From: Verrucomicrobiia bacterium
GTDB lineage: Bacteria; Verrucomicrobiota; Verrucomicrobiia; Opitutales; Opitutaceae
Direction: 5' to 3'
DNA length: 64,000 nucleotides
Assembly (NCBI GenBank): GCA_011525695.1
Contig: WYBX01000081.1
Span: forward strand, 1 to 64,000
Shown: piece after piece, positions 9,547-56,372 of the stretch
Layout of the letters: each line of letters opens with the position of its first letter
Numbering within the stretch: the first letter of the stretch is position 1
The notes under the pieces: model-generated
The model's input: the letters and a program-made list of their open reading frames with translations, nothing else
Database searches by the model: none
Told to the model about the DNA's origin: nothing
Program-made: the position numbers and the translations under genes

Positions 9547-10029
9547 ATGAAAACACCGCAGTTCGATCCGACTCGGAGCTGCCGACCTTCGCCCGACGAA
9601 ATCAACACTGGTTTGTCACCAGCGATCGGTAAGGGCGGATTCTGCGACATTGCCCGAGCGTTGTACGCCGACAGCTTCGATGGAGTGATCCTCACTGAGC
9701 CCGCTGGTCGTATCCTAGCGGCCAATTCAGTGGCATGCCGGCTACTTGCCTTGAGGGAGGAGCAGTTGTTGAAGCTCACGCGCATGGACCTGGTCAGGCG
9801 CGGCGAGCCTCGCGAGCCGACGCGTCACGGCTTCCCAATCTTCAGGTGCGCCACGGCCGGGATGCTCGCTGGGCCGCAACGCTCGACCCCCTTGGCCCGC
9901 CGCTCAATGCTTGAGCCGGTGCCGGGCCCGATAGTCGCGCGGGCGCAGCCCGCATTCCCGCCGGAACATCGCACTCAGGTACTCGGTGTGCTCGAAGCCC
10001 GTTGCGAGGGCAATTTCGCCCACTGGTAA
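9547..10029 (+). pseudogene. PAS-domain fragment
   Basis: Residues 34-83 (RALYADSFDGVILTEPAGRI, then LAANSVACRLLALREEQLL) read as the first half of a PAS sensory domain. After about residue 95 the frame loses protein character and runs into the 3' end of the XylR-like gene on the other strand. No output domain (kinase, GGDEF or HTH) remains. This looks like the 5' remnant of a PAS-containing sensor whose remainder was lost when the neighbouring segment arrived. The alternative is a short free-standing PAS protein ending near 9850 by a stop not in this frame, which is less likely. Confidence 0.5.
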
Positions 10030-11049
10030 ATTTGTTCTCACTAATAATTCCTGCACCCGTTCGATCCGAAGCCTGCGGAGGTAGGTGTGCGGCGTCATGC
10101 CCAGCGCCGTCTTGAACCGCCGCTCCAGCGCCGTGCGCGCCATCGGCACCGCGCGCAGCACGTCACTCACATTTACCCCACCTGCCGCCTGCTCCCGCAT
10201 GTAGCGGACGATGCGCGCGACCTTCGCGTCGCCGACGGCGGCCAGATCGGTCGACTTCCGCGAGGCCACGCCCAGCGGCGCGACTTCGTGCAATTTCACT
10301 GCGATCTTCCTTCCCGCCATCGCGCGGGCCAGGAGTGCCGCAGCCTCGTAACCCGCACGCTGCGCGTTGGGCATCACGCTGGAAAGCGGCGGATCGCAGA
10401 GCTCGCAGAGAGTCGTGTCGTTGTGCACCCCGATCACCGCCACCTCGTCCGGCACCTTCAGCCCCACCAGCTGGCAGGCAGCAAGCACCTGCTGGCCACG
10501 TACGTCGAGGCAGGCCAGGATACCGACGGGGCGCCGCAGCCGACGCAGCCAACGGGCGATTGCTTCCACCTCCTCATCGACCCCGCCGGCCGGCGGTGAA
10601 AACCTGGCACAGTGTCCGCCGATCGGCCTGGTCGCGATCGCAAACATCTCACCGCGCAGCCGCGACCAGTTGGAGCGCGGGTCGCCGCAATAGGCAAAAT
10701 GCCGCAACCCGCGCTCGATCAAATGGGTCGCCGCCAGCTGCGCCGCTACTCGCGCGTCAGTCGCCACCCGCGGAAAGACCAGCCGCGGCAGCGCCGCGCT
10801 CACGTCGATTACTGGCAACCGCGTCGCCCGCAATGCTCGCGCAATCCGCCCGTTTTCCACCCGCGCAATAACGCCGTTCCCATCCCACCCGCGAAGCCAT
10901 GACGGCACAGCCGCGCCGCGCCCCTGCTCCGTCAGCCGCAACAGCCACGGCCCCTTCTCCCGTACCCATGCCCGCACCCCCTGCAGGAGCTCGCGCGCAT
11001 AGCTGTTCGATGTTTCAATCAGAAGGGCGACCTTTGGCGGTGGCTTCAC
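9904..11049 (-). CDS. XylR-like (LacI-type sensor plus AraC HTH) transcriptional regulator A
   Basis: About 381 residues. The N-terminal 270 residues are a periplasmic-binding/LacI-like sugar sensor, starting VALLIETSNSYARELLQGVR and containing GVHNDTTLCELCDPPLSSVM. The C-terminal 100 residues carry two AraC-type helix-turn-helix motifs (ALERRFKTALGMTPHTYLRR and VGEIALATGFEHTEYLSAMF). GTG at 11049 gives six residues before VALLIET, exactly as in paralogue B at 19405. ATG at 11118 would add 23 residues of poor character. It diverges from the sugar acid operon at 11155 and most likely controls it in response to a pathway sugar or acid. Confidence 0.92.
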   Translation of the reverse strand: MKPPPKVALLIETSNSYARELLQGVRAWVREKGPWLLRLTEQGRGAAVPSWLRGWDGNGVIARVENGRIARALRATRLPVIDVSAALPRLVFPRVATDARVAAQLAATHLIERGLRHFAYCGDPRSNWSRLRGEMFAIATRPIGGHCARFSPPAGGVDEEVEAIARWLRRLRRPVGILACLDVRGQQVLAACQLVGLKVPDEVAVIGVHNDTTLCELCDPPLSSVMPNAQRAGYEAAALLARAMAGRKIAVKLHEVAPLGVASRKSTDLAAVGDAKVARIVRYMREQAAGGVNVSDVLRAVPMARTALERRFKTALGMTPHTYLRRLRIERVQELLVRTNLPVGEIALATGFEHTEYLSAMFRRECGLRPRDYRARHRLKH

Positions 11050-11154
11050 CCCCGCAACCAAGACCAACCTACCTGCGGGTGCGACGCCATTTCTCTGTTT
11101 AAATGTGGAATTTCTCATGCCCGTCAGACCAAACTCCTGCTACCTTCCCAGCGG

Positions 11155-12225
11155 ATGAGCCAGACGTTCAAAATCGCGGTGCTTCCGGGTGACGGGATCG
11201 GCCCGGAGGTCATCGCCGAGGGCCTCAAAGTCCTGCGGGCGGTCGAGACCCTCGTCAGTGGCGCCAGCTTCGAACTCGTCGAGCATGCGGTCGGCGCCGG
11301 CGAATACCTCCGCTCCGGAGATCCGCTTCCCCCCGCCACCCTGGAAGAGATTAAGTCGGCCGATGCGATTCTCCTGGGTGCAATGGGGCTCCCGTCAGTC
11401 CGCTGGCCGAATGGCGTGGAGATGACGCCGCAGATAGACCTCCGCGAGTTCCTCGATCTTTACAATGGAATCCGGCCGATCCGGCTTTATCACGAGTCCC
11501 ATTCGCCGCTTCGCGGCTACGCCGCCGATGCGTCCGGCCGGGCCATCGACTTCGTCGTCGTGCGCGAAAACTGCGAGGGACTCTTCGCCGAGCGCCGCAC
11601 ACCCCAGACCGAGGGCCCTGACTTCAGGACTGACACCCTGAGAATCACGCGACGCGGGGCGACCCGGATTTGTCGCGCCGCCCTCGAGCTAGCCCGCAGC
11701 CGCCGCCGGCACTGCACCTTGGTTGACAAGGCCAACGTGCTTCCCTCGATGGCGTTTTTTCGCGAACTTTTCGACGAAGTTGCGCGCGAGTTCCCCGATG
11801 TGCACACGGACCGCGTCTATGTCGACGCCATGGCGCTCTACCTCGTACAGCGTCCGCACACGTTCGATGTGTTGGTTACCGAAAACATGTTCGGCGACAT
11901 CCTCTCCGACCTCGGCGCGGGGCTCATTGGCGGGATGGGGCTAGCGCCCTCCGCAGACCTCGGCGACGAGTTCGGCGTGTTCCAGCCCTCCCACGGGTCC
12001 GCACCAACGATCGCCGGCAAGGGCATCGCCAATCCGATCGCGACGATCCTGTCGGTTGCCATGATGCTCGAATGGCTGGGCCATCCCGCCACGGTCCGGG
12101 GCGCAACGCTCATCAACCAGGCGGTGCAACTTGTGCTCTGGGATCCGTCGCACCGAACCGCCGATCTGGGCGGCACCATGAGCACCACTCAGATGGGCGA
12201 CCTCGTCTGCCAGTCCATCGGCTGA
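11155..12225 (+). CDS. Beta-decarboxylating dehydrogenase, tartrate/isopropylmalate dehydrogenase family (copy A)
   Basis: A 356-residue NAD(P)- and metal-dependent dehydrogenase of the LeuB/Icd/TtuC family, which oxidises a 2-hydroxy acid and decarboxylates the product. It shows VLPGDGIGPEVIAEG, the substrate-binding VVRENCEGLFAERR, DKANVLPSMAFF, YVDAMALYLVQRP, NMFGDILSDLGAGLIGGMG and GSAPTIAGKGIANPIATILS. The wording resembles tartrate dehydrogenases more than LeuB. It is the first gene of an operon ending with a four-carbon acid sugar kinase, so the substrate may be a C4 or sugar acid, possibly phosphorylated. A close paralogue lies at 48237-49328. Confidence 0.9.
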   Translation: MSQTFKIAVLPGDGIGPEVIAEGLKVLRAVETLVSGASFELVEHAVGAGEYLRSGDPLPPATLEEIKSADAILLGAMGLPSVRWPNGVEMTPQIDLREFLDLYNGIRPIRLYHESHSPLRGYAADASGRAIDFVVVRENCEGLFAERRTPQTEGPDFRTDTLRITRRGATRICRAALELARSRRRHCTLVDKANVLPSMAFFRELFDEVAREFPDVHTDRVYVDAMALYLVQRPHTFDVLVTENMFGDILSDLGAGLIGGMGLAPSADLGDEFGVFQPSHGSAPTIAGKGIANPIATILSVAMMLEWLGHPATVRGATLINQAVQLVLWDPSHRTADLGGTMSTTQMGDLVCQSIG

Positions 12226-18934: not shown

Positions 18935-19404
18935 GGATCATCGGCAACTTTCCCGGTACTTGAAACTTTATAACCTCGACTGTCTGCTCACCGTCTTAAC
19001 CAAAGATTACGCCACAGAACTTTTTTGCTTATGAAAGCCATCAAACTTCACCTGCTCCTTACGTGATTTAGCCATTCTCCACAATGTGATTCATCAGGGC
19101 GGGGCGACATGGCGCGCCGCGGATTTCCAGTGGGCCGCGCAAGGGATGACCAGACAATTTAGAGCACTCCAGTGTCTTGTGCTAGCTTCGTGGACGAGAA
19201 TGGCACTTGCGACTAACGTGTCTGCCGCCTGTCGTAATCGTCGCGGCTGCGCACTTCGGCATTCACCGGCAAAGGGGAATCGTCGCCGCACAATCTTCCG
19301 CTGCTCGCGCCGACGGTGTGATCCGAAATGCAGGCCGTGACTCAGCGTCCTTCGGACAATTTTCAGGTGGCATCAGAAGCATCGAAGCAACAACCTTCGT
19401 CAGA
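18935..19404. other. Divergent intergenic region
   Basis: 470 bp between the beta-helix gene and regulator B. The first 150 bp are AT-rich like the beta-helix gene, and the remainder is GC-rich like the chromosome, so a transfer boundary probably lies near 19080. Open frames here lack protein character. A frame continuous with the regulator reaches back to 19207 but is not believed to be translated. Confidence 0.45.
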
Positions 19405-20571
19405 ATGGCTAAACGCCAGAAAGTCGCTCTGCTCATTGAGACCTCCAACTCGTACGCGCGGGAGCTGCTGCACGGGGTACGAGCGTGGCTCCGCGAGCAC
19501 CCCACGTGGGCGATTCGCCTCTCTGAACATGCCCGCGGCGCGGGGGTGCCGCCGTGGCTGCGTCATTGGAGCGGTGACGGTATTATCGCCAGGGTCGACA
19601 ACCTCCGTATTGCCGCCGCGCTGCGGGCAACCGGATTGCCCGTCGTGGATGTTTCTGCTGCTCTGGCAAAGCCGGTCTTTCCCCAAATCGTGACTGACAG
19701 CAGGGCCGCTACCCACCTGGCGGCCGAGCATCTGCGAGAACGAGGATTCCGGCATTTTGGCTACTGTGGAGACGAACAGTTCTATTGGTCAGGCCGGCGG
19801 CGACGCTATTTCGCAGAGCACGTGCGCCAAATGAACGGTACAATCTCGTTCTTCGCGCAACCCAAGCTGCAGTCCGAACTTTACAATGCCGACGATGAAC
19901 TTGCCGCCATTGGCAGGTGGTTAAAATCGCTGCCGAAGCCGGCCGGAGTTTTGGCCTGTTACGATGTACGTGGGCGGCAGGTGCTCGAGGCATGCCAAGA
20001 GGCGGATATTGCGGTACCGGATGAAGTCGCTGTCATCGGGATTCATAACGACGACGTACTATGTGACCTGTGCGACCCCCCTCTTTCGAGCGTTATCCCT
20101 GACGCCCGGCGCGCCGGATACGAAGCGGCGTTGCTGCTGTCGCGTTTAATGGCTGGGAGCAGAGTGCCTGTGGACACGCGGCTGGTGGAGCCTGTTGGGG
20201 TGGAGTCGCGACAATCGACCGACGTTCTGGCCGTGGCGGATTCAAAGCTCGCGGCCGCTGTGCGTTTTATTCGCGATCACGCAGGGGAGTCCATAGGCGT
20301 GAAAGATGTGCTGAGAGCCATGCCGATGTCCCGAACACTGCTCATGCAGAAATTCAAGCGGCACCTGGGGCGAACGCCCTTAAAATACATCAATTCACTC
20401 CGCATCGAACGCGTGAAGGCCCTGCTTGCCACGACGGACCTTTCCGTAAGCGCCATAGCCGAACGTTCCGGTTTCGAACATATAGAATATCTCAGCGTGT
20501 ACTTTCGCCGGTCGACGGGTTTATCACCGAGCGACTACCGCAGGCAGCATCGGGCGGGACGCCGGGATTGA
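19405..20571 (+). CDS. XylR-like (LacI-type sensor plus AraC HTH) transcriptional regulator B
   Basis: A 388-residue paralogue of regulator A with the same architecture. It opens MAKRQKVALLIETSNSYARE, has the ligand-domain block GIHNDDVLCDLCDPPLSSVI, and ends with the two AraC motifs LLMQKFKRHLGRTPLKYINS and VSAIAERSGFEHIEYLSVYF. ATG at 19405 is preferred because relatives begin only a few residues before VALLIET. No obvious target operon starts directly beside it on the divergent side except the broken beta-helix gene, which it may once have controlled. Confidence 0.92.
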   Translation: MAKRQKVALLIETSNSYARELLHGVRAWLREHPTWAIRLSEHARGAGVPPWLRHWSGDGIIARVDNLRIAAALRATGLPVVDVSAALAKPVFPQIVTDSRAATHLAAEHLRERGFRHFGYCGDEQFYWSGRRRRYFAEHVRQMNGTISFFAQPKLQSELYNADDELAAIGRWLKSLPKPAGVLACYDVRGRQVLEACQEADIAVPDEVAVIGIHNDDVLCDLCDPPLSSVIPDARRAGYEAALLLSRLMAGSRVPVDTRLVEPVGVESRQSTDVLAVADSKLAAAVRFIRDHAGESIGVKDVLRAMPMSRTLLMQKFKRHLGRTPLKYINSLRIERVKALLATTDLSVSAIAERSGFEHIEYLSVYFRRSTGLSPSDYRRQHRAGRRD

Positions 20572-20583
20572 TTACCGCTGCTC

Positions 20584-20899
20584 TTGGGGGTGGGTCGGAT
20601 TTCAGGCCTCGGCCTGACGATTCTGGGCGTCCTGTTTGCCCTCGTGTTGGACCAGGTGTTGCAGGCCTTCCTCTTCACCTACCGACTCGGAGGGTTTGCC
20701 GGACTGTGCGGCCAAGCCGCCAGCGTCCGAGCGCGGCCAGGACTTGATCTTTTTGGATCTGCCGGGATGGCTGCGCCAGGAACGCTGGATTGGGTTCTGG
20801 TCGCGCTACCGCGAGGATCTGGTTGGGTTCGGGCTGGCCTGGCTCACCGTCGGGCTGCTCCTCGGCCTGGCCTGGGGACTCATGCAGCTGGGACGTTAA
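20584..20899 (+). pseudogene. Possible small membrane protein with a frameshift
   Basis: Two overlapping frames each look like half of a small membrane protein. From 20584 (TTG) the frame gives ISGLGLTILGVLFALVLDQV plus LQAFLFTYRLGGFAGL. From about 20700 the next frame gives LPGWLRQERWIGFWSRYRED plus LVGFGLAWLTVGLLLGLAWG and ends at 20899. Joined by a one-base shift near 20705-20715 they make about 105 residues with two membrane helices. It directly follows regulator B, and its 3' end overlaps the URO-D gene on the other strand by 20 bp. No family is recognised. Confidence 0.35.
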
Positions 20900-21998
20900 G
20901 GCCGGATACAAGCTGCGCGAGTTCGTCCGCCTCGGCGGGCGTCAGCCGATCCTCGACGAAAATCGCCGTGGCGCGCTTATCGAGGCGGCGCGCGAGTTCC
21001 GCCACCTCATCCTTTGGTGTAATCACGAGCACCGGCTTGCCGGCGGCCTGCAGGGTGCGCAGAAGATCGAGTTGTGCCAGCGCCGATGGGTTCCCGGCTC
21101 CCGGCGTGTATTGCACCGCCGCGATGCAAGGTTCGGCTGCCAGCGCCGGCGCATGGCGGGCAGCCTGCGGGCCATCGAGATGAAAGAGCAGCCGGCCTGC
21201 GATTCCGGCCTGCCGCCGAAGCGAGGGCAGGCAAAACTCGCCGAAGTCGTCGGCTCCAATCAACGCGCTGAAGTCACAGGTGGGTATCGTGAAAGGCCGT
21301 TCCGACCAGCAAGCCAGCCACTGCGTGATGCCCGCCCCGCGGCTCAGGACCGCATCCACCATCTGACCGTAAATCGGCTCCCAAGCATCCATGACCCGCA
21401 TCGCCGCCACCTTCACGGCTTCCCGATGGTCGAACAAATCCAGGCACATTCGATCCGGCCCCCGCAGATTGACGAGCGTGTCGCGGGCGCCCGTCAAGTC
21501 GGGTGTGCAGACCACATAGCGTCCGCGGGCGTCGCCGGCCAGGAGCGCCAGCAGTCTCATGGCGCACCGGAACCACGGACTTTCCGGATCGAACGCAAGA
21601 TCGGGCGGGTCGTCCCAATCCATGATGATCGGTTCCTGCCATGACATTTGCTCGGTTTCCGAGAGCTGGAGCGGCGCCCCGAGAAACGCCGCGATCGAAA
21701 CCGGCCCGATATCGGCACGGATGCGCGGCAGCGTGTCGGCGACGAAGTGCGTGTGCTCGAGTTGGAGGCGTTGGGCTGCGAGCCATTGTTCCGGCTGGTC
21801 GATCAGGTGAAACGCCTTGCCGCGGTAGATGTCGGTCCGGGTCGGGGCAGCCGCGATCAGCAGGGGCCGTTCGGCGGAGAAATTCCACCACCGTTCCCAG
21901 CGTGCCGCGATCTCCGGGAAATGCGGACAGAACTCCAACGCTTCAGTGCCCCGCGCACGGAGTTGCCCGGTCCAGACGGCATGGCGTGACGGGCTCAT
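20880..21998 (-). CDS. Uroporphyrinogen decarboxylase (URO-D)-fold protein
   Basis: A 372-residue protein with the general layout of the URO-D/cobalamin methyltransferase superfamily rather than a haem-pathway enzyme. Segments supporting this are DTLPRIRADIGPVSIAAFLG, TPDLTGARDTLVNLRG, the LLFHLDGPQAARHAPAL strand (a metal-site region in corrinoid methyltransferases) and AAVQYTPGAGNPSALAQLDL. Members near carbohydrate loci in Verrucomicrobia and Planctomycetes have no assigned reaction. It stands between a small membrane remnant and a hairpin-rich intergenic region carrying the 67-bp shared element, which lies upstream of its start. No signal peptide. Confidence 0.75.
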   Translation of the reverse strand: MSPSRHAVWTGQLRARGTEALEFCPHFPEIAARWERWWNFSAERPLLIAAAPTRTDIYRGKAFHLIDQPEQWLAAQRLQLEHTHFVADTLPRIRADIGPVSIAAFLGAPLQLSETEQMSWQEPIIMDWDDPPDLAFDPESPWFRCAMRLLALLAGDARGRYVVCTPDLTGARDTLVNLRGPDRMCLDLFDHREAVKVAAMRVMDAWEPIYGQMVDAVLSRGAGITQWLACWSERPFTIPTCDFSALIGADDFGEFCLPSLRRQAGIAGRLLFHLDGPQAARHAPALAAEPCIAAVQYTPGAGNPSALAQLDLLRTLQAAGKPVLVITPKDEVAELARRLDKRATAIFVEDRLTPAEADELAQLVSGLNVPAA

Positions 21999-22013
21999 GC
22001 CTTCAGGCTACGT

Positions 22014-22031
22014 CCGGCGGGATCCCGCCGG
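22014..22031. promoter_or_regulatory. 18-bp perfect palindrome upstream of the URO-D-fold gene
   Basis: CCGGCGGGATCCCGCCGG reads identically on both strands and lies 16 bp upstream of the start codon of the URO-D-fold gene. It could be an operator or an mRNA hairpin in the 5' leader. The left twelve bases recur at 47986-47997 in the gap upstream of the TonB receptor, inside a shorter palindrome. Confidence 0.4.
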
Positions 22032-22153
22032 CAACGGCACCGCCACTGAGCTGGATAGCGCGACTCCCGGCCATCATGAGCCTTCGTGCATATTTCGCGT
22101 TTCGTATTCATACCCCTGCGACAGCAGAATAAAAAAGAAGCCCGCTGGTGCAT

Positions 22154-22220
22154 TCTAGCAGATAAAAGGTAACGTGGCCATGAGCTCCAATACATCTCTT
22201 CTTTGATTTTCCACACTCCG
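22154..22220 (-). promoter_or_regulatory. 67-bp conserved intergenic element, copy 1
   Basis: By hand about 53 of 67 bases match 56225-56291 without gaps. The best kept blocks (plus strand) are GTGGCCATGAG and TCTTCTTTGATTTTC followed by ACACTCCG. Both copies lie upstream of a minus-strand gene in the same orientation: 155 bp before the URO-D-fold gene here, and 33 bp before regulator C at the other copy. A shared promoter/operator, or a small RNA gene, are the main options. Confidence 0.5.
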
Positions 22221-22320
22221 TAGCGAGCGAGAAATTCCGGTGCTTGTGGCTTCTCCGGATTGTAGATGTCACTTGGGGACCTCGTTTACGCGAACTCCAT
22301 TTGGACATAGTGGGACGTGA

Positions 22321-24202: not shown

Positions 24203-25714
24203 ATGAATATTTCTTGTATAACTGTGTTGTTGCTCCTGCTTCCGGCAATGAACGCGATGGCCGCAAATCCTTCGAAGTCTGTGCCTGCCAGGCGTGATCC
24301 GAATATCATATTCCTTGTTGCCGATGATCTGGGCTATGGCGAAATCGGGAGTTTTGGGCAGCGGGAGATTAAGACGCCTCATCTCGATCGCATGGCGGTA
24401 GAGGGCATGCGTTTCACCCGCCACTATTCCGGCAGCCCCGTGTGCGCGCCTTCCCGGGCAGTGCTGATGACCGGACTGCATCCCGGACACGCACCGATCC
24501 GCAATAATCGGAACATCGAGCCTGAAGGCTAGGAGCTGTTTTTTAGCGATTCCGTCACCCTGCCGAAGCTTCTGAAGGCGGAAGGCTACGTGACGGGCGC
24601 ATTCGGAAAATGGGGTCTCGGCGGCCCGGGGACTTCCGGTGACCCCATGGAGCAGGGCTTCGATCGATTCTTCGGCTACAAGTGTCAACGGCACGCGCAC
24701 AACTACTATCCTGCATATCTATGGCACGACCGCCGTAGGGTCGCGGTGAACAACCCGCCGTTTGCGGCGCACCAGAAACTCCCAGAAGGTGCGGATGCCT
24801 TCGTCCCCGAAAGCTATGCCGGCTATTCGGGGACAATGTACGCGCCTGATCTATACACCGAGCAAGCCTTGCGATTCATCCGGGAGAACCATGGTCAGGC
24901 CTTCTTTCTTTATTACGCCACAACGGTCCCGCACGTGGCCTTGCAAGTTCCGGCAGATTCACTCGACGAGTACCTCGGCAAGTGGCCGGAGATTCCCTAC
25001 TCGGGCGCCAAGGGATATCTGCCCCATCCTACCCCGCGCGCGGCCTACGCCGCGATGATCACGAGGATGGATCGGGAAATCGGACGAATTCTCGCTCTAG
25101 TCAAGGAGCTTGGCCTAGATAACGACACTTTGATTGTATTCACTTCCGACAATGGTGCGGTCGACGGGGTTGGCGGAGTGGAGGTCGAGACATTCAACTC
25201 GAATGGTGGGCTCCGCTCAGGCAAACGATGGGTATACGAGGGCGGAGTGCGTGTTCCGCTGATCGTGCGTTGGTTCGGGACGATCGCCCCCGGCCAGACG
25301 TCCGATCGAATCACCGGGTTCGAGGACTGGCTACCGACGCTGCTAGAGGCCATCGGGGCGCCGGAGCGAATGCCACGGCAGAACGATGGAATCTCCTTCT
25401 TCCCGACGTTGAGGAGCCGCCCTCAACCGCCACGTTCGTTCCTCTACCGAGAGTTTCCAGCATTCGGCGGGCAACAGGCGGTATGGCTGGGCAACTGGAA
25501 AGGGGTGAGGTCAGGCCTCATGCACAACCCCTCGGACTATCGGATCGAGCTGTACGACCTCGCCCGCGACGCGGGAGAAACCACGGACGTTGCGTCAGAT
25601 CATCCGGAGCTCGTGGATAAGATTGCCGAAATAATGAGTGCCGAGCATTGCCCATCGGCCCGGTTTCATTTTCCGGCACTGGATAGCCAGGTGACAAGCA
25701 CTCGGAATCCGTGA
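24203..25714 (+). pseudogene. Secreted arylsulfatase interrupted by an in-frame amber codon
   Basis: The reading frame is continuous over 504 codons except for one TAG at 24530-24532. Before it are a signal peptide ([20 protein letters not shown]), the metal site [17 protein letters not shown], and [11 protein letters not shown], the formylglycine motif of type I sulfatases. After it the frame continues ELFFSDSVTLPKLLKAEGYV, FGKWGLGGPG, TVPHVALQVPADSLDEYLGK, VFTSDNGAVDG and the sulfatase C-terminal domain. Relatives usually have Gln at this spot (EGQE-like), so a single CAG-to-TAG change explains it. As read, only a 109-residue fragment is made unless the amber codon is suppressed. An intact paralogue follows at 25908. 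Confidence 0.88.
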
Positions 25715-25907
25715 CACGGCAGTGGATGCAGCGGCCTGCCGCCGAGCATTGTGGAATAGATTTAGACGATGAGGAGTGGTTTTCGTCCAGATTCGGTGGC
25801 TAACGCGTTGACCGAGTCGCTGCGCCCCCCGAAGATCTCGCTGGACCACGCGATGACGGGATAATCGCGAGACTGCACCGGGAATGGCAGACCCTCCCGG
25901 AGTAACG

Positions 25908-27317
25908 ATGTCGTCGCTCACTTCCGCCTCGATGTACATGAGAATATTCACCCGCTGTGTTTTATGCCTCGCCCTGGCTTCCGCCGCTCGTACCGCGCAG
26001 CCCAACATCGTTTTCGTTCTCGCCGACGATCTCGGCTACCACGAGATCTCGGCTCTCGGCCAGCGGCGCTACCACACGCCAAATATCGATCGCCTCATTC
26101 GAGAGGGCATGCTGTTCACCGACCACTATGCCGGCTCTCCAGTGTGCGCTCCTTCGCGCAATTCTCTGATGACCGGCCAGCACACAGGACACTTGACGGT
26201 TCGTAACAATTTCGCGGGCGGAGGCTCATCCGGTGATCGAGTAGCGCTCAAGCCGACCGACGTCACGCTGCCGGAACGCTTGCGGGCCGCCGGGTATGCC
26301 ACCGGCATGGTCGGCAAGTGGGGCCTCGGCGAGGACGGTTCCGGCAGCGAGCCGTGGAACAAGGGATGGGATTTCTTCTATGGCTTCGTCAATCAGAAGC
26401 ACGCGCACAATCAATTTCCCGAGTTCCTTTATCGGAACGAAGTAAAGGAGCCAATAGTTTCGAACTATGGGCACTTGCGGGCCACCTTTGCCAACGATCG
26501 ATTCACCGAGGAGGCTGAGCAGTTTCTCGACCGTCAGCGGGATAGTGGCCGGCCATTCTTCCTCTTTGTGGCCTACACTACTCCGCATATCGAGTTGAGG
26601 TGTCCGGCCGACTCCCTCAAGGAGGCGGAGGCCCGGCACCCGGCTCTCACGGCTCCGGGTGCACCGAAGAGCGCACTTCCATTTGCCGCAATGGTGATGC
26701 GCCTGGATCGTGATGTGGGACGCCTAATATCCCGACTCAAGGACCTCGGGCTCGAAGAGAACACCCTGGTGTGCTTCACCAGCGACAACGGGCCGCATGA
26801 TGAAGGCGGCAAGGTCAATAAATATTTCCAAACACCTGACGCCTTGCGAGGAATCAAGCGCGACGTGTACGAAGGCGGCATTCGAGTGCCCTTCATCGCC
26901 CGCTGGCCGGGCAGGGTTTCGGCCGGCACACAAACGGCCCATTTGTCGGCATTCTGGGATTTCTCCGCCACCGCGCTCGAACTTGCGGGCGTGACGTCGA
27001 CGCTGCCGGAGGAGGGAGTATCTTTTGCTCCAACGCTGCTGGGCCGCCATGAGCAGCAGGAAAAGCATGATTACCTTTATTGGGAATTCGTTGTCGACGG
27101 CGAGGGACGTCAGGCCATTCGGCAAGGTGAATGGAAGGCCGTCCGCTATGGATTGGGCTCGCGCATTGAGCTTTATAATCTTGATATTGATAGGCAGGAG
27201 ACCCGTGACCTCGCCGCACAACACCCCGATCTGATACGGCACTTTTCGGAACTACTGGTCAATGCCCGGATAGACGATCCACTGTTCCCGCTTGCCCCGT
27301 CCACTGGCCGGCGGTGA
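25908..27317 (+). CDS. Secreted type I (formylglycine) sulfatase
   Basis: A 469-residue S1-family sulfatase expected to remove sulfate esters from a glycan in the periplasm or outside the cell. The metal-binding VLADDLGYHEISALGQ and the CAPSRNSLMTG motif, whose Cys becomes formylglycine, are intact, as are GYATGMVGKWGLG, YTTPHIEL and TSDNGPHDEG. ATG at 25908 is chosen because GGAG sits five bases upstream; the signal peptide core is FTRCVLCLALASAA. No maturase (anSME or FGE) is present in the window. It follows the broken paralogue and precedes a glycosidase on the same strand. Confidence 0.94.
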   Translation: MSSLTSASMYMRIFTRCVLCLALASAARTAQPNIVFVLADDLGYHEISALGQRRYHTPNIDRLIREGMLFTDHYAGSPVCAPSRNSLMTGQHTGHLTVRNNFAGGGSSGDRVALKPTDVTLPERLRAAGYATGMVGKWGLGEDGSGSEPWNKGWDFFYGFVNQKHAHNQFPEFLYRNEVKEPIVSNYGHLRATFANDRFTEEAEQFLDRQRDSGRPFFLFVAYTTPHIELRCPADSLKEAEARHPALTAPGAPKSALPFAAMVMRLDRDVGRLISRLKDLGLEENTLVCFTSDNGPHDEGGKVNKYFQTPDALRGIKRDVYEGGIRVPFIARWPGRVSAGTQTAHLSAFWDFSATALELAGVTSTLPEEGVSFAPTLLGRHEQQEKHDYLYWEFVVDGEGRQAIRQGEWKAVRYGLGSRIELYNLDIDRQETRDLAAQHPDLIRHFSELLVNARIDDPLFPLAPSTGRR

Positions 27318-47786: not shown

Positions 47787-48236
47787 GGTTGTGGCGCGTT
47801 TGGCTCCGCTGCTTCGCGAAGACGTGAAGCAGCGTTCGCATGGTGAAAGCGATGTGATGCTTAGCGATGCTGGGGATCCTGAGAATTCGGTCACTCCCAA
47901 TCTTCCGAGATGGGGCTTTGTTGCATGGATTTGAACGATCCTGCCACCCGTCGCGGTTGGTCGGTCTACCTGGTTCATCTACCCGCCGGCGGGATCCTAT
48001 AGATTTATCCGACGGTCAGAACTGAAACAGTTGTGAACAATTGTCCATAATCGTACCAGAATAGCTCCGAACCAGGCTCTCAGTGTCAGATTTTGCTTTA
48101 AGCAGCCGAACGCTGCAGTCCTGATCTCTGCTGCCAGTCCTGCAAATACACCTGCCGGTGGTTTCCATTGTTCCATCAACGGCAGATTCTCTGGATCGCG
48201 TTTCGATTTGCCACTTCCTCCTTCAACAGCCTTCAC
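47787..48236. promoter_or_regulatory. Divergent control region between the TonB receptor and dehydrogenase B
   Basis: 450 bp with no gene. It holds the palindrome CCCGCCGGCGGG (47982-47993), whose continuation CCGGCGGGATCC is shared with 22014-22025. It also holds the imperfect operator-like repeat CAGTTGTGAACAATTG (48028-48043; one mismatch between arms). Both could be sites for the LacI/AraC-type regulators encoded elsewhere in the window. No promoter hexamers were confidently recognised. Confidence 0.4.
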
Positions 48237-49328
48237 ATGAGCCGTTTTCATATCGCCGTTGTTCCGGGTGACGGTATCGGGCCCGAGGTCGTCGCTTCCA
48301 GCCTAGAGGTGCTGACCGCTGTTCAGGCGCAGCTCGTAGACGTGTCTTTCGACTGCGAGGAGGTTTCAGTTGGCGCCGGTGAGTACCTGCGCCACGGCGA
48401 CCCGTTGCCGAAGAGCGCGATAGCGCAAATGAAGGCAGCCGATGCGATTTTACTCGGAGCAACGGGTTTGCCTGAAGTACGCTGGCCAAATGGCGTGGAG
48501 ATCACGCCGCAGATCGATATTCGTGAAATCCTCGCTCTCTATAATGGCGTTCGCCCCATCAAGCTCTACAATGCCGCCCATTCACCTCTCAAGGGCTTTG
48601 GCCCGGGCCAGCGTCCGATTGATATGGCAATCGTACGCGAGAACTGCGAAGGCCTGTTTTCAGACCGGCTTGCCCCCAGGCCCGCAGGACGGGACTTCGA
48701 GACAGATACGCTGAGAATCACCTACCGCGGAGCGGCACGCATCTGCCGTGCCGCCTTCGATCTGGCTCGACGGCGGCGGGGACACCTTACCCTCGTCGAC
48801 AAGGCGAACGTGCTTCCCTCGATGGCGTTCTTCCGATCGGTCTTCAATGAGATCGCCTCCGAATTTCCGGATGTACGGACCGACCGTGTTTACGTCGACG
48901 CCATGGCACTTTTCCTGGTGCAGCGCCCTCACGAATTCGACGTGTTGGTTACGGAGAATATGTTCGGAGATATACTTTCCGATCTCGCGGCCGGGTTGAT
49001 TGGCGGCATGGGCATGGCGCCCTCGGCAGACCTCGGTGACGAATACGGGCTCTTTCAACCGAGCCACGGGACAGCGCCGACGATTGCCGGCAAGGGCATC
49101 GCCAATCCAATTGCCACCATTCTCTCCGTCGGCATGATGCTCGATTGGCTCGGCCATCCAGAAACCATCCGCGGTGCCCGGATGATCGAAGAAGCTGTCG
49201 CGCAGATAATGCGCTGTCCCGACTTGCTGACGTTGGACCTCGGGGGTACGAAAACGACGCGGGAGATCACCGCGGCTCTTATCGCTGCGATCCCGGCTCC
49301 CCTTCCATGTCAGGAATCGGCGACCTGA
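48237..49328 (+). CDS. Beta-decarboxylating dehydrogenase, tartrate/isopropylmalate dehydrogenase family (copy B)
   Basis: A 363-residue paralogue of the enzyme at 11155 with the same landmark segments: VVPGDGIGPEVVASSLEVLT, GEYLRHGDPLP, VRENCEGLFSDRL, DKANVLPSMAFF, YVDAMALFLVQRP, NMFGDILSDLAAGLIGGMGM and GTAPTIAGKGIANPIATILS. The two are similar over their full length by eye. It diverges from the TonB receptor gene and has no kinase or transporter beside it, so it may serve degradation of the acid released by the glycan locus. ATG at 48237 gives MSRFHIAVVPGDG, matching copy A. Confidence 0.9.
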   Translation: MSRFHIAVVPGDGIGPEVVASSLEVLTAVQAQLVDVSFDCEEVSVGAGEYLRHGDPLPKSAIAQMKAADAILLGATGLPEVRWPNGVEITPQIDIREILALYNGVRPIKLYNAAHSPLKGFGPGQRPIDMAIVRENCEGLFSDRLAPRPAGRDFETDTLRITYRGAARICRAAFDLARRRRGHLTLVDKANVLPSMAFFRSVFNEIASEFPDVRTDRVYVDAMALFLVQRPHEFDVLVTENMFGDILSDLAAGLIGGMGMAPSADLGDEYGLFQPSHGTAPTIAGKGIANPIATILSVGMMLDWLGHPETIRGARMIEEAVAQIMRCPDLLTLDLGGTKTTREITAALIAAIPAPLPCQESAT

Positions 49329-52116: not shown

Positions 52117-53531
52117 GTCTGGGAAAAATCGGCCATGACAGTTCGGTGTCGAAAGCAGTTCGTGCGAATCGCCAGACAAAGTACGCCAGCGAGCAGCCAT
52201 GCCCCGCCGATGAGGAATGTCTTTGCCGGCAAATTCAGCCACATGATCAGGCAAATCAGGAAACCGGCCATCGGCGGGAGGAAATCGAGCAGAAAGCCCC
52301 GCATGGTCTTTACAGGGGCCTTGAAAAAATACTCCGACGCCGCGGCGACGTTCACCCCCATGAACGCGAGAAACGCCCCGAAGTTGATCAGCCGGGCGCA
52401 TTCGCCGTAGTCCAGCCAGAAGGCGCCGCCCAGGGCCAGCACCCCGACGAACATGATGTCATAACTCGGGCTGGCATGCTTCCGATCTAGATGCCCGAAA
52501 AACCGACGCGGAATCACCCCGTCGCGGCCCATGCCATAAAGCAGCCGGGCCGCACCGACCTGGCCGGTGATGCCGGAACCGACGCTGCCGACCAGCAGAA
52601 TGATCGAAAGCGTGGCATCCAGCGTGGCGCCGCCGACGCGGTTCGCGACCGCCATGATCGCGGTGTCCAGCGCGTTCGTTCGTGCGGCCTCATCCGTCAG
52701 GTCGCGGGCGAAGGACGCCCAGTCCGGCCAGGCCACCTGGGCGAGATAAATCTGGGCACCGCTCCACACGCCCGTGATCACGCAGGTCAGGACGGCGGCC
52801 AGCAGCACGTTGCGGCGCGGGTTCTTCACTTCCTCGGACAAGGTCGTCAGCCCGTCGAAGCCGATGTAGGTCAGCGCGGCAAGCGCGGTGGCGGAACCGA
52901 TGGCCGTCAATGAAAACGACTCGGAATCGTAGAACGGCCGGCTGTCAAACAGGCCACCGATCCCGTGGGCCTGCATGATATTGCGAATCGCTGCCCCCAT
53001 GAAATAGAAGACCACGACGCTCATGACGATCATGAGGAGCCAGTTCACGCCGGACGTGACCTTGATTCCGTTCAGATTGACCAGGGTGAAACTCGCGCCG
53101 AAGACCATGACCCATGCGAAGTACGGGATCATGGGCAGAAGGTGGTGGGCCGCGATGCTCGTGAAGATCACACAGAGCACCGGGATGAACATGTAGTCCA
53201 TGAACATCGACCATCCGGCAATGAACCCGAGGTGCGGATGCAGGCCCCGGCCCACATAGGTGTAGGCGGAACCGGCGGCCGGGTGGCGAGCGGCCATCCG
53301 GCCATAACTGATCGCCGTGAAGATCATCGCGACCATCGCAATGAGGATCGTGGTGACGGCATGCCCCCGCGAGATGTGATTAGCGTGCCCGAAAAGCGGC
53401 AGGGCGGCGACGGGCTGGATCAGGATGATGCCGTAGATCACCAGATCACCGAGCGACAACACCCGTCGCAGCCGCGGTCCCTCGCCACTACCCGCCGGGG
53501 CGGCGACCGGCAGGCTCGTTTGTTCGATCAT
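52113..53531 (-). CDS. APC-family amino acid/polyamine permease
   Basis: A 472-residue inner-membrane transporter with about twelve helices. The conserved substrate-site stretch RRVLSLGDLVIYGIILIQPV, the AAGSAYTYVGRGLHPHLGFI helix and LTYIGFDGLTTLSEEVKNPR place it in the amino acid/polyamine/organocation family, close to putrescine/ethanolamine importers. ATG at 53531 overlaps the aminotransferase stop as ATGA, so it is translationally coupled to it. Pairing with an aminotransferase suggests that it moves an amine, amino acid or amino sugar derivative. Confidence 0.93.
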   Translation of the reverse strand: MIEQTSLPVAAPAGSGEGPRLRRVLSLGDLVIYGIILIQPVAALPLFGHANHISRGHAVTTILIAMVAMIFTAISYGRMAARHPAAGSAYTYVGRGLHPHLGFIAGWSMFMDYMFIPVLCVIFTSIAAHHLLPMIPYFAWVMVFGASFTLVNLNGIKVTSGVNWLLMIVMSVVVFYFMGAAIRNIMQAHGIGGLFDSRPFYDSESFSLTAIGSATALAALTYIGFDGLTTLSEEVKNPRRNVLLAAVLTCVITGVWSGAQIYLAQVAWPDWASFARDLTDEAARTNALDTAIMAVANRVGGATLDATLSIILLVGSVGSGITGQVGAARLLYGMGRDGVIPRRFFGHLDRKHASPSYDIMFVGVLALGGAFWLDYGECARLINFGAFLAFMGVNVAAASEYFFKAPVKTMRGFLLDFLPPMAGFLICLIMWLNLPAKTFLIGGAWLLAGVLCLAIRTNCFRHRTVMADFSQT

Positions 53532-54733
53532 ACGAGTTGGGGCCGGGGCTGTGCACAAGCCGCGATGAACTGATCCCCCGCCGCCTCAATCTCGGCATCG
53601 GTTGAGTTGATGTTGATGCCCCAGCCGGCGCCCAGCCCGCCGTCCACCACCCCGATGCTGATGTTCATCGCGCGACTCAGAATGTCATCGGTCCTGGGAT
53701 ACGAGCCCCTGGTGTACGGCTGTCCCAGTTCCTTCAGGTGCCGCATCACGTGCTCCATGTTGGCGTACACGTGCCATCCGCTCTGGTCGACAGTTTTGGA
53801 GCCGAGCGCCTTGGACACCCGGGCGGCCTGCGCCACCGTGTCGAAGATGATGGTGCAGAGCGTGGCGCAATCCCCCTCGGGATCGTTCAACGTGCGAAAT
53901 TTGAAACCGGTGGCGCCGGACAGAAGCGACTTCAGACGGCTCCGCTTTTCCCGCAGCGTCGCGACGATGCGGTCGAGCTTGCGCAGCTGGGCCAGGCCCA
54001 CCGCGGCGGTGATTTCATGAATTCGGAAATTCAGTCCGAGGACACTGCGAACCCCAACCTCCACGCCGAACCGGAGCGGCTTGTGCCCGTGATCGTGGAT
54101 GCCGAACGCAGTTTCATACATGGCTTGGCTGCTCGTGATGACCAAACCGCCGTCTCCGCTGTTGATGGTCTTGAAGACATTGAGCGAAAACACCCCGATG
54201 TCGCCGATCGTGCCGACTTTCTTTCCGTGGTACGAGGCTCCGGCCGCCTGGCAGCAGTCCTCGAGCACGAGCAGATTGTGGCGGCGGGCGACCGCCATGA
54301 TCCGGTCCATGTCGCAGGGGTTTCCCAGCATGTGGACGGGCATGATCGCCCGCGTCCGCGGGGTGATCCGGCGTTCGATGTCGTCCGGATCAAGCGTGAG
54401 ACTTTCATCGATCTCCGCGAGCACCGGCACGAGGCCCAAGAAAAGGCAGGTGCTGTAGCACGCGAGGAAGGTGTAGGCCGGCACGATCACCTCGTCCCCA
54501 CGCCTGAGGCCGAGCGCCGAGAGGGCCGCGATGAGCGAGGCCGTGCCCGACGACGTCGCGAGCGCGAACTGCGTCCCGCAATACGAGGCGAATTCCTTCT
54601 CGAGAGTGGCGGCCTGATGCAGAAACCGCGGATCCGTTTCGCTTCCATAGCGGAACAGATGCCCGCTTCGCATCACGGCCGTCACTGCCTTTATTTCTTC
54701 ATCGCCCATCCAATATGCGCCTGGTCCTGGCAT
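53528..54733 (-). CDS. DegT/DnrJ/EryC1/StrS-family PLP aminotransferase
   Basis: A 401-residue aminotransferase of the sugar aminotransferase family, acting on keto-sugars or ketocyclitols. Motifs are FASYCGTQFALATSSGTASL, GDEVIVPAYTFLACY, PVHMLGNPCDMDRI, LEDCCQAAGASYHGKKVGTI and SLNVFKTINSGDGG, the last with the PLP-binding Lys. The start ATG at 54733 has AAGGA seven bases upstream. It heads a three-gene set (aminotransferase, permease, GH3) with overlapping stops and starts, downstream of XylR-like regulator C. Degradative use, by deaminating an imported amino sugar, fits the context better than antibiotic or LPS synthesis. Confidence 0.92.
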   Translation of the reverse strand: MPGPGAYWMGDEEIKAVTAVMRSGHLFRYGSETDPRFLHQAATLEKEFASYCGTQFALATSSGTASLIAALSALGLRRGDEVIVPAYTFLACYSTCLFLGLVPVLAEIDESLTLDPDDIERRITPRTRAIMPVHMLGNPCDMDRIMAVARRHNLLVLEDCCQAAGASYHGKKVGTIGDIGVFSLNVFKTINSGDGGLVITSSQAMYETAFGIHDHGHKPLRFGVEVGVRSVLGLNFRIHEITAAVGLAQLRKLDRIVATLREKRSRLKSLLSGATGFKFRTLNDPEGDCATLCTIIFDTVAQAARVSKALGSKTVDQSGWHVYANMEHVMRHLKELGQPYTRGSYPRTDDILSRAMNISIGVVDGGLGAGWGININSTDAEIEAAGDQFIAACAQPRPQLV

Positions 54734-54856: not shown

Positions 54857-56191
54857 TCAGGCAGCCGAACTCGAGGCCAAGGTCCGGTGACTTATACTCT
54901 GTACGTCGGGCATTCTGGAGGCTGGAAGTTCGACGGCGACGGCGGCGCTCGGCAGCGGGTCAGCGAGGGCACGCTGCTCGCGAAAACTCTTCGGCGTGAC
55001 CCCGAAAGAGGTGCGAAAAGCACGGCCGAAATACCCCTGGCTTTGAAAGCCCACCGCCGCGCTCACTTCACTGATCGTCATACGTGTGCGAGTGAGGAGC
55101 ACCTTGGCTCTAGCCAAACGATATTGAATCAGATGCTTTATTGGAGGCTGGCCTACCGTAGACAAAAATTGCATGGCAAAGCTGGCTCGGCACATGCCGG
55201 CAATCCTGGCCAGCTGGCTGACCGTGATCTCCTCGCTGAAGCGATCGTGAATATACGTGATGGCCCGATCGATGCGCGGCTCCCCCACGAGCCGAAGCTG
55301 ACTCGAGCGTCGCACGACCAGTTCACCGCTGACAAACTTACGTTCGAGCGGCATTCGTGCTGCCGGTTGATTCCGGAGCGTATCGATCATGGCGGCGGCC
55401 GTGCGGCCAATGCTTCGGTAACAGATGCGCACCGTGGTCAGCGGATACATCTCGGTATACAGAGGGTGATTGTCCGCGCCCACCACAGCAACCTGCTGCG
55501 GAATGGATAGGCCGGCCGCATGAACGCACTCCACACAGCTGAGGGCTGTTTGATCGTTCATGGCCACGATGGCGGTCGGCAGTGGCGAACGTCGGAGGAG
55601 ACGCGCAAGGGCGCCCCCCCTGCCGGCGTGCCCGCCCCAGAATTCGGTGTCGCTGGGAACATCGAAGAATTGATAGTTGAAGTGACCAAGGCGCTTAGCC
55701 AGTGCGCCGTGCAGGCTATCTGCCCGCCATCGAGCCGCCGGGCTGGACTTGCAGCCCACAAAAATAAAATTCTCGAATCCTTCGCCAATCAAGTGGTCTG
55801 CCACCATTTCCGTGATGGCGATGGCATCCGATGTGATGGTCGGAATCGGCAGGTCCAAAGTGCATTCGTGGGCGCTTACCATCGGCATTCCGCCGCCGAC
55901 GGCGCGAAGGATTCCCTTCATCGCCGGAACTTGCACCGATGTCACTAGCCCGATCGGCGCGGCCGGAAGGTTCGCAACCTCGAAGTTCACGTGATCCCGC
56001 CAGAGAAAGGAGTAGTCGTGCCCATTACAGTGCTGAAGCAGGCCCATCGCGATGGCGCTTTCCGCGTATCCCGCTGATTGGGTGAGAAAGACCAATAGCG
56101 GCTTGCGAGCAGAACGAGTAATCTCCCCCTCTTGACAGCGGATTTGAGGTGGCCGGGTTGAAGCAGAAAAAGCGTGGTCGTCGTTTCTCAT
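54857..56191 (-). CDS. XylR-like (LacI-type sensor plus AraC HTH) transcriptional regulator C
   Basis: A 444-residue regulator, more distant from A and B. The ligand domain starts PLLVFLTQSAGYAESAIAMG and contains VAVVGADNHPLYTEMYPLTT. The AraC domain has SQLARIAGMCRASFAMQFLS and ISEVSAAVGFQSQGYFGRAF followed by FGVTPKSFREQR. ATG at 56191 has GAGGAG about nine bases upstream, a good ribosome site for this window. It lies 123 bp before the aminotransferase on the same strand and probably controls that set. The 67-bp shared element sits immediately upstream. Confidence 0.92.
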   Translation of the reverse strand: MRNDDHAFSASTRPPQIRCQEGEITRSARKPLLVFLTQSAGYAESAIAMGLLQHCNGHDYSFLWRDHVNFEVANLPAAPIGLVTSVQVPAMKGILRAVGGGMPMVSAHECTLDLPIPTITSDAIAITEMVADHLIGEGFENFIFVGCKSSPAARWRADSLHGALAKRLGHFNYQFFDVPSDTEFWGGHAGRGGALARLLRRSPLPTAIVAMNDQTALSCVECVHAAGLSIPQQVAVVGADNHPLYTEMYPLTTVRICYRSIGRTAAAMIDTLRNQPAARMPLERKFVSGELVVRRSSQLRLVGEPRIDRAITYIHDRFSEEITVSQLARIAGMCRASFAMQFLSTVGQPPIKHLIQYRLARAKVLLTRTRMTISEVSAAVGFQSQGYFGRAFRTSFGVTPKSFREQRALADPLPSAAVAVELPASRMPDVQSISHRTLASSSAA

Positions 56192-56224
56192 AGCATCGTT
56201 CTCCTCTCGGGGTGGCGGGTGAAT

Positions 56225-56291
56225 CCTAGCAGCAGGGAGGAAATGTGGCCATGAGATATACTACATTTCTTCTTTGATTTTCGACACTCCG
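56225..56291 (-). promoter_or_regulatory. 67-bp conserved intergenic element, copy 2
   Basis: Partner of 22154-22220 with the same length and orientation and about 79% identity by hand count. It ends 33 bp before the start codon of regulator C. That position suits a promoter plus operator, possibly autoregulated by the encoded XylR-like protein. Confidence 0.5.
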
Positions 56292-56372
56292 CAGAGACGC
56301 CGTGCGGTTTCCTTCAAGGATGCCTGCATTGTGACGGCTTGAAGGCTACTTCTTCGCTGCTTCGCGTCAGGT

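What the first reader, a model, noticed from the sequence alone, without database searches (positions are those of the whole stretch)
22154..22220. 67-bp element duplicated 34 kb apart upstream of unrelated genes
Copies at 22154-22220 and 56225-56291 have the same length, no gaps and about 79% identity, and both lie upstream of a minus-strand gene (URO-D-fold protein; regulator C). The core GTGGCCATGAG and TCTTCTTTGATTTTC blocks are nearly invariant. Sharing between a regulator promoter and a distant gene points to a regulon operator, or to a small RNA family.
Basis: seen in the sequence. Interest (0 to 1): 0.6.

Follow-up and report, generated by a model that had tools for sequence, protein, structure and literature searches.

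The report
Paired promoter-operator of a sugar regulator
Two stretches of DNA 34,000 bases apart share about 83 bases that look like the same switch (a promoter with a protein-docking site next to it), one in front of a sugar-sensing regulator gene and one in front of a distant gene, so a single regulator probably controls both; this is an ordinary kind of bacterial gene control, though this particular sequence has not been seen elsewhere.

Summary
The repeat is real. It is 83 bp rather than 67 bp (22144-22226 and 56215-56297, 65/83 identical, no gaps) and is the only non-coding pair of its strength in the window. The host genome (6.5 Mb, about 99% complete) holds exactly these two copies. None was found in the 251 other family genomes searched, in plasmids or in phages. 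Flanks share nothing, there are no terminal inverted repeats, and no RNA fold is common to both copies. This excludes a multi-copy transposable repeat and argues against a small-RNA family. On the minus strand both copies contain TGGCCA-17-TGCTAG(A/G)AT, a sigma-70 extended -10 promoter; these are the only two such spacer-17 matches in the window. A conserved A-rich block lies at about -71 to -36, where AraC-type activators bind. Copy 2 puts its predicted start 25 nt before the ATG of a XylR-like (PBP + AraC) regulator heading a regulator-aminotransferase-permease operon. Copy 1 lies about 146 nt before a conserved gene of unknown family. Best reading: a two-target regulon with autoregulation by regulator C. 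Binding and start sites are inferred. Orthologues of the copy-1 gene lack the element and regulator C has no close orthologue, so the link rests on position. The URO-D assignment was not confirmed.

The parts
22144..22226 (-). copy 1 of the 83-bp promoter-operator element, about 145 nt upstream of the gene at 20880-21998
   Evidence: ungapped 65/83 match to copy 2; only two copies in the genome
22191..22216 (-). copy 1 conserved A-rich block GTGTGGAAAATCAAAGAAGAGATGTA, about -71 to -46 of the predicted start; proposed activator site (with CTCA at 22181-22184)
   Evidence: 24/26 identical to copy 2
22175..22180 (-). copy 1 predicted -35 hexamer TGGCCA
   Evidence: consensus scan, 17-nt spacer
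22152..22157 (-). copy 1 predicted extended -10 TGC-TAGAAT
   Evidence: consensus scan
56215..56297 (-). copy 2 of the element; predicted promoter of the regulator C operon
56262..56287 (-). copy 2 conserved A-rich block GTGTCGAAAATCAAAGAAGAAATGTA
56246..56251 (-). copy 2 predicted -35 hexamer TGGCCA
56223..56228 (-). copy 2 predicted extended -10 TGC-TAGGAT; predicted start near 56216, about 25 nt before ATG 56191
54857..56191 (-). regulator C: LacI/PBP-type sensor domain plus AraC HTH (XylR-like), 444 aa
   Evidence: Pfam PF13377, PF12833; best PDB relatives are the xylose operon regulator chains 4fe4/4fe7
53528..54733 (-). DegT/DnrJ/EryC1/StrS-family PLP aminotransferase, probable operon partner of regulator C
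   Evidence: Pfam PF01041; 80% paralogue on contig C68
52113..53558 (-). APC-family amino-acid permease, probable operon partner
   Evidence: Pfam PF00324/PF13520; 82% paralogue next to the C68 aminotransferase
   Evidence: no Pfam/NCBIfam hit; homologues in 24 of 252 family genomes including the own genome

Best explanation
The element is a promoter with an adjoining activator site, present twice, that makes a small two-target regulon of regulator C (54857-56191). On the minus strand each copy has a sigma-70-type extended -10 promoter (TGGCCA, 17 nt, TGC-TAGAAT or TAGGAT). Directly upstream, at about -71 to -36, is a conserved 26-bp A-rich block plus CTCA, which I propose is where a dimer of the XylR-like regulator binds. 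Copy 2 drives the regulator's own operon (regulator, DegT aminotransferase, APC permease), that is, autoregulation. Copy 1 drives the gene at 20880-21998. When the sensor domain binds its sugar-type ligand, the regulator would contact RNA polymerase at the weak -35 and switch on both promoters together. Shown: two copies only, identical promoter geometry, position ahead of both genes, domain content of the regulator. Inferred: transcription starts, binding by regulator C, activation rather than repression, and the ligand.
For: Exactly two copies in the own genome, both in this gene cluster. Both carry TGGCCA-17-TGCTAG(A/G)AT; these are the only two extended -10 matches with spacer 17 on either strand of the window (about 0.004-0.01 expected per kb per strand; with spacers 16-18 there are two more), and the tool's own scan picked copy 1 independently. 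Copy 2 lies immediately before the ATG of a LacI/PBP-AraC regulator, with a short leader and GAGGAG. The regulator's closest solved relatives are XylR chains 4fe4/4fe7. The conserved block sits at the same place as the mapped site of the AraC-type activator MtlR, at least 37 bp just upstream of -35 in two 15-bp blocks at -72 to -58 and -50 to -36 (PMC4514859). The elements are more AT-rich (46-47% GC) than the window (61%).
Against: No binding data, and no orthologous site to footprint: regulator C has only one 42% relative among 252 family genomes, in another context and without the motif upstream, and none among 388 phylum genomes at E<=1e-70. Orthologues and the 81% paralogue of the copy-1 gene lack the element, so its control by this promoter is not conserved. 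The copy-1 leader would be about 146 nt, against about 25 nt for copy 2. No direct or inverted repeat shared by both copies marks an operator. Differences are not significantly clustered outside the proposed sites (p about 0.25). The copy-2 -10 (TAGGAT) is weak, and the generic promoter scan does not report copy 2.
Confidence: 0.6

Rival explanations
1. The element is a shared promoter-operator, but for another regulator (one of the other 30-odd LacI/XylR-type regulators of the genome, or a global one), and regulator C is only a target.
For: The genome has 33 PF13377 matches, including regulators A (9904-11118) and B (19207-20571) in this window. B's gene lies close to copy 1.
Against: A global regulator would leave more than two sites; only two exist, and neither half of the element recurs with up to 3 mismatches apart from one chance-level hit. 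No further copy lies upstream of A or B or in the other regulator loci examined.
Confidence: 0.17
2. The pair is a chance-preserved duplicate: a fragment of promoter DNA copied by recombination between the two loci, with only the copy 2 promoter functional.
For: 78% ungapped identity with sharp ends and unrelated flanks; mismatches are not significantly clustered; the copy-1 gene's orthologues lack it; the genome has other duplicated cassettes.
Against: After 22% divergence both copies keep the -35 hexamer, the 17-nt spacing, a usable -10 and the 15-bp invariant block with no insertion or deletion, and both face a gene start.
Confidence: 0.13
3. The element is coding: the tail of a short or decayed protein read on the minus strand (SLRSVENQRRDVLELMATLPFIC* / SLRSVENQRRNVVYLMATFPPCC*).
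For: In that frame the 18 differences fall 7/2/9 on codon positions 1/2/3 and the peptides agree up to a shared TAG.
Against: The 7/2/9 split is not significant (chi-square 4.3, 2 d.f., p about 0.11, computed by hand). The frame in copy 2 has no ATG/GTG/TTG start ahead of the shared peptide. The peptide has no Pfam match and only chance-level hits in 250 genomes and in plasmids. The shared TAG is also part of the -10.
Confidence: 0.06
4. A small structured RNA or cis-acting RNA family.
For: Copy 2 on the plus strand folds well (z -3.5).
Against: Copy 1 folds worse than shuffles on both strands (z +1.6 and +1.3), copy 2 minus strand z -0.5; no Rfam match.
Confidence: 0.03
5. A mobile or REP-like repeat.
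For: Two dispersed copies exist.
Against: Only two copies in 6.5 Mb, none in the other family genomes, no shared inverted repeats, no hits in plasmids or phages.
Confidence: 0.01

Closest known systems
XylR of Escherichia coli (PBP-type sensor plus AraC DNA-binding domain) and its operator-promoters
   Same: Regulator C has the same two-domain architecture and its best solved-structure matches are XylR chains 4fe4/4fe7; site next to -35 of metabolic promoters (from general knowledge)
   Different: Low similarity (about 97 bits); ligand unknown; the neighbouring genes are an aminotransferase and an amino-acid permease, not xylose genes; the operator sequence was not compared, as no paper describing the XylR site was found in the library
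MtlR / PmtlE of Pseudomonas fluorescens (AraC/XylS activator; PMC4514859)
   Same: Conserved activator region of about 36-41 bp immediately upstream of -35, covering -72 to -36
   Different: No direct repeats shared by the two copies found here; regulator C has a PBP-type sensor domain; no binding data

Membership tests
XylR-like (PBP + AraC) regulator | Peripla_BP_3 sensor domain | tested here: met
   PF13377, E 2.6e-27
XylR-like (PBP + AraC) regulator | C-terminal AraC double HTH | tested here: met
   PF12833, E 4.3e-20; aligns to XylR 4fe4 over residues 113-406
Promoter with AraC-type activator site | Core promoter hexamers at legal spacing, same in both copies | tested here: met
   TGGCCA-17-TAGAAT / TAGGAT with TG
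Promoter with AraC-type activator site | Conserved block directly upstream of -35 | tested here: met
   26-bp block at -71 to -46 and CTCA at -39 to -36
Promoter with AraC-type activator site | Two directly repeated half sites (common, not universal, in this kind) | tested here: not met
   No 6-mer direct or inverted repeat (1 mismatch or less) shared by both copies; I therefore claim it works like such a site, not that membership is shown
Promoter with AraC-type activator site | Regulator binds and activates | not testable with these tools
   needs gel shift, footprint, reporter
Transposable/REP repeat | Many copies, terminal or internal inverted repeats | tested here: not met
   two copies, no shared inverted repeat
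Small RNA family | Common stable secondary structure | tested here: not met
   z-scores +1.6, -3.5, +1.3, -0.5; no Rfam match
URO-D family (copy-1 gene) | Sequence profile or fold match | tested here: inconclusive
   no match in Pfam, NCBIfam or PDB sequences; model pLDDT 40, so no fold search was made

The most novel reading that the evidence does not exclude
A lineage-restricted, autoregulated XylR-like regulator without close relatives recruits a conserved uncharacterised sugar-associated protein (20880-21998) into an aminotransferase/amino-acid-permease pathway by placing a copy of its own promoter upstream of it, that is, regulon growth by promoter copying.
Probability: 0.25. Interest if true: 0.4.

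Novelty: new member of a known kind. Interest (0 to 1): 0.27.

Why it matters
It gives one of many uncharacterised XylR-type regulators in this bacterial family a concrete predicted operator and two targets. It also links a conserved protein of unknown function with an aminotransferase-permease operon, a testable hint to its pathway. It may be an example of regulon growth by copying a whole promoter-operator rather than evolving a site.

Tried and rejected
Chance similarity: rejected. Mobile repeat: rejected by copy number and lack of inverted repeats. RNA family: rejected; the strong plus-strand fold of copy 2 is not shared. Coding remnant: tested through codon positions, peptide searches and Pfam; not supported. 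Extended duplication of the flanks: none. Phylogenetic footprinting: failed because regulator C and the aminotransferase have no close orthologues in the family genomes, and regulator C none in the phylum sample or the genome collection, and the copy-1 gene's orthologues lack the element. Weak further sites in the fetched loci: best 29/53, the level of background; an earlier scan of the same kind used a wrong spacing and was replaced. Clustering of mismatches: not significant. Viral contigs, phages and plasmids: no match.

Full report
OBSERVATION. The match extends to 83 bp, 22144-22226 and 56215-56297, 65/83 identical. It stops sharply: gapped alignment of the flanks gives no more than shuffled sequence. 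Among all same-strand 67-mer pairs in the window only four reach 50/67, and the other three lie in paralogous coding sequence (two in the isopropylmalate/tartrate-dehydrogenase-like pair, one in sulfatases).

COPY NUMBER. BLAST of copy 1 with its flanks against the whole host genome (6,544,475 bases, 98.85% complete) finds the two copies and two chance-level pieces. Patterns for the upstream block and for the promoter half, each with up to three mismatches, find the two copies; the block pattern also finds one 3-mismatch site on C137, with one match to the reversed control pattern. In 95 relatives and then 252 family genomes (both counts include the own genome) nothing else rises above chance. 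Plasmid, phage and viral collections have none. A multi-copy transposable repeat is excluded.

WHAT IT LOOKS LIKE. On the minus strand, the strand of both downstream genes, each copy reads GGAGTGT(G/C)GAAAATCAAAGAAGA(G/A)ATGTA, six mostly variable bases, CTCATGGCCAC(G/A)TT(A/T)CCT, five variable bases, CTGCTAG(A/G)AT(G/T)CACC. TGGCCA, 17 nt, TAGAAT/TAGGAT preceded by TGC is an extended -10 sigma-70-type promoter. The generic scan reports copy 1 by itself, though not copy 2. A scan of both strands of the window for extended -10 promoters with spacer 17 returns exactly the two copies (two additional hits with spacers 16-18), against an expectation of about 0.004-0.01 per kb per strand. The element is 46-47% GC in a 61% GC window. 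The predicted start at copy 2 is about 25 nt before ATG 56191; at copy 1 it is about 146 nt before ATG 21998. The conserved A-rich block and CTCA then span about -71 to -36. That matches where the AraC/XylS activator MtlR binds at PmtlE: at least 37 bp upstream of -35, in two blocks at -72 to -58 and -50 to -36 (PMC4514859).

GENES. Gene 54857-56191 is a Peripla_BP_3 + AraC regulator whose closest solved relatives are XylR chains 4fe4/4fe7. Behind it in the same direction lie a DegT-type aminotransferase and an APC permease. A copy of this aminotransferase-permease pair at 80/82% identity sits on contig C68 without the regulator or the element. Gene 20880-21998 has no Pfam or NCBIfam family. 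It has homologues in 24 of 252 family genomes including an 81% paralogue in the own genome; in the loci read, neighbours include an SSF symporter and a GH2 beta-galactosidase (own paralogue) or an FGGY kinase and a DeoR regulator (G190). None of its close homologues has the element upstream, so the gene probably sits under different regulators in different genomes. The URO-D label could not be verified.

MECHANISM. The simplest account is a two-target regulon. Regulator C activates its own operon from copy 2 and the gene at 20880-21998 from copy 1, binding the conserved block next to a weak -35. Shown: copy number, geometry, positions and domain content. Inferred: start sites, binding, sign of regulation and ligand. 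The main weakness is the lack of independent conservation. Regulator C has one 42% relative in the family, in a different context, and none at E<=1e-70 in a phylum sample, so no footprint is possible. The mismatches are not significantly clustered (p about 0.25), and no direct repeat shared by the copies marks half-sites.

ALTERNATIVES. A coding reading (SLRSVENQRRDVLELMATLPFIC* / SLRSVENQRRNVVYLMATFPPCC*) has a 7/2/9 codon-position split. It lacks a usual start codon in copy 2 and any homologue. RNA folding is not shared and Rfam has no match. A decaying duplicate with only copy 2 functional cannot be excluded.

VERDICT. Real, most likely an ordinary promoter-operator pair of a pathway-specific XylR-like regulator. 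It is a useful prediction of modest interest.

Noticed in passing
24203-25714: A sulfatase gene is interrupted by a single in-frame TAG at 24530-24532, shortly after the CAPSR active-site motif; the neighbouring sulfatase at 25884-27317 is intact.
   Followed up: partly
L079 (G000:C68:42000-54000): The aminotransferase-permease pair 52113-54733 has a second copy elsewhere in the genome at 80/82% protein identity, near a GH3 (54% identical) and a sulfatase gene, but without regulator C; no other family genome searched has the aminotransferase at E<=1e-90.
   Followed up: partly
11155-12225 and 48168-49328: Two 69% identical isopropylmalate/tartrate-dehydrogenase-like genes 37 kb apart in the same cluster, one of them next to regulator A (9904-11118), which is 55% identical to regulator B (19207-20571).
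   Followed up: no
22010-22035: A perfect 18-bp palindrome CCGGCGGGATCCCGCCGG lies just upstream of ATG 21998 in the predicted leader of the copy-1 gene.
   Followed up: no
56215-56297, plus strand: Copy 2 has a strong inverted repeat (GGGAGGAAATGTGG / CTACATTTCTTCTTT; RNA z -3.5) that copy 1 lacks.
   Followed up: partly
20880-21998: A conserved protein family (17 invariant columns over 18 sequences, including HxDG at 273-276) with no match in Pfam, NCBIfam or PDB sequences, found in variable sugar-utilisation neighbourhoods.
   Followed up: partly
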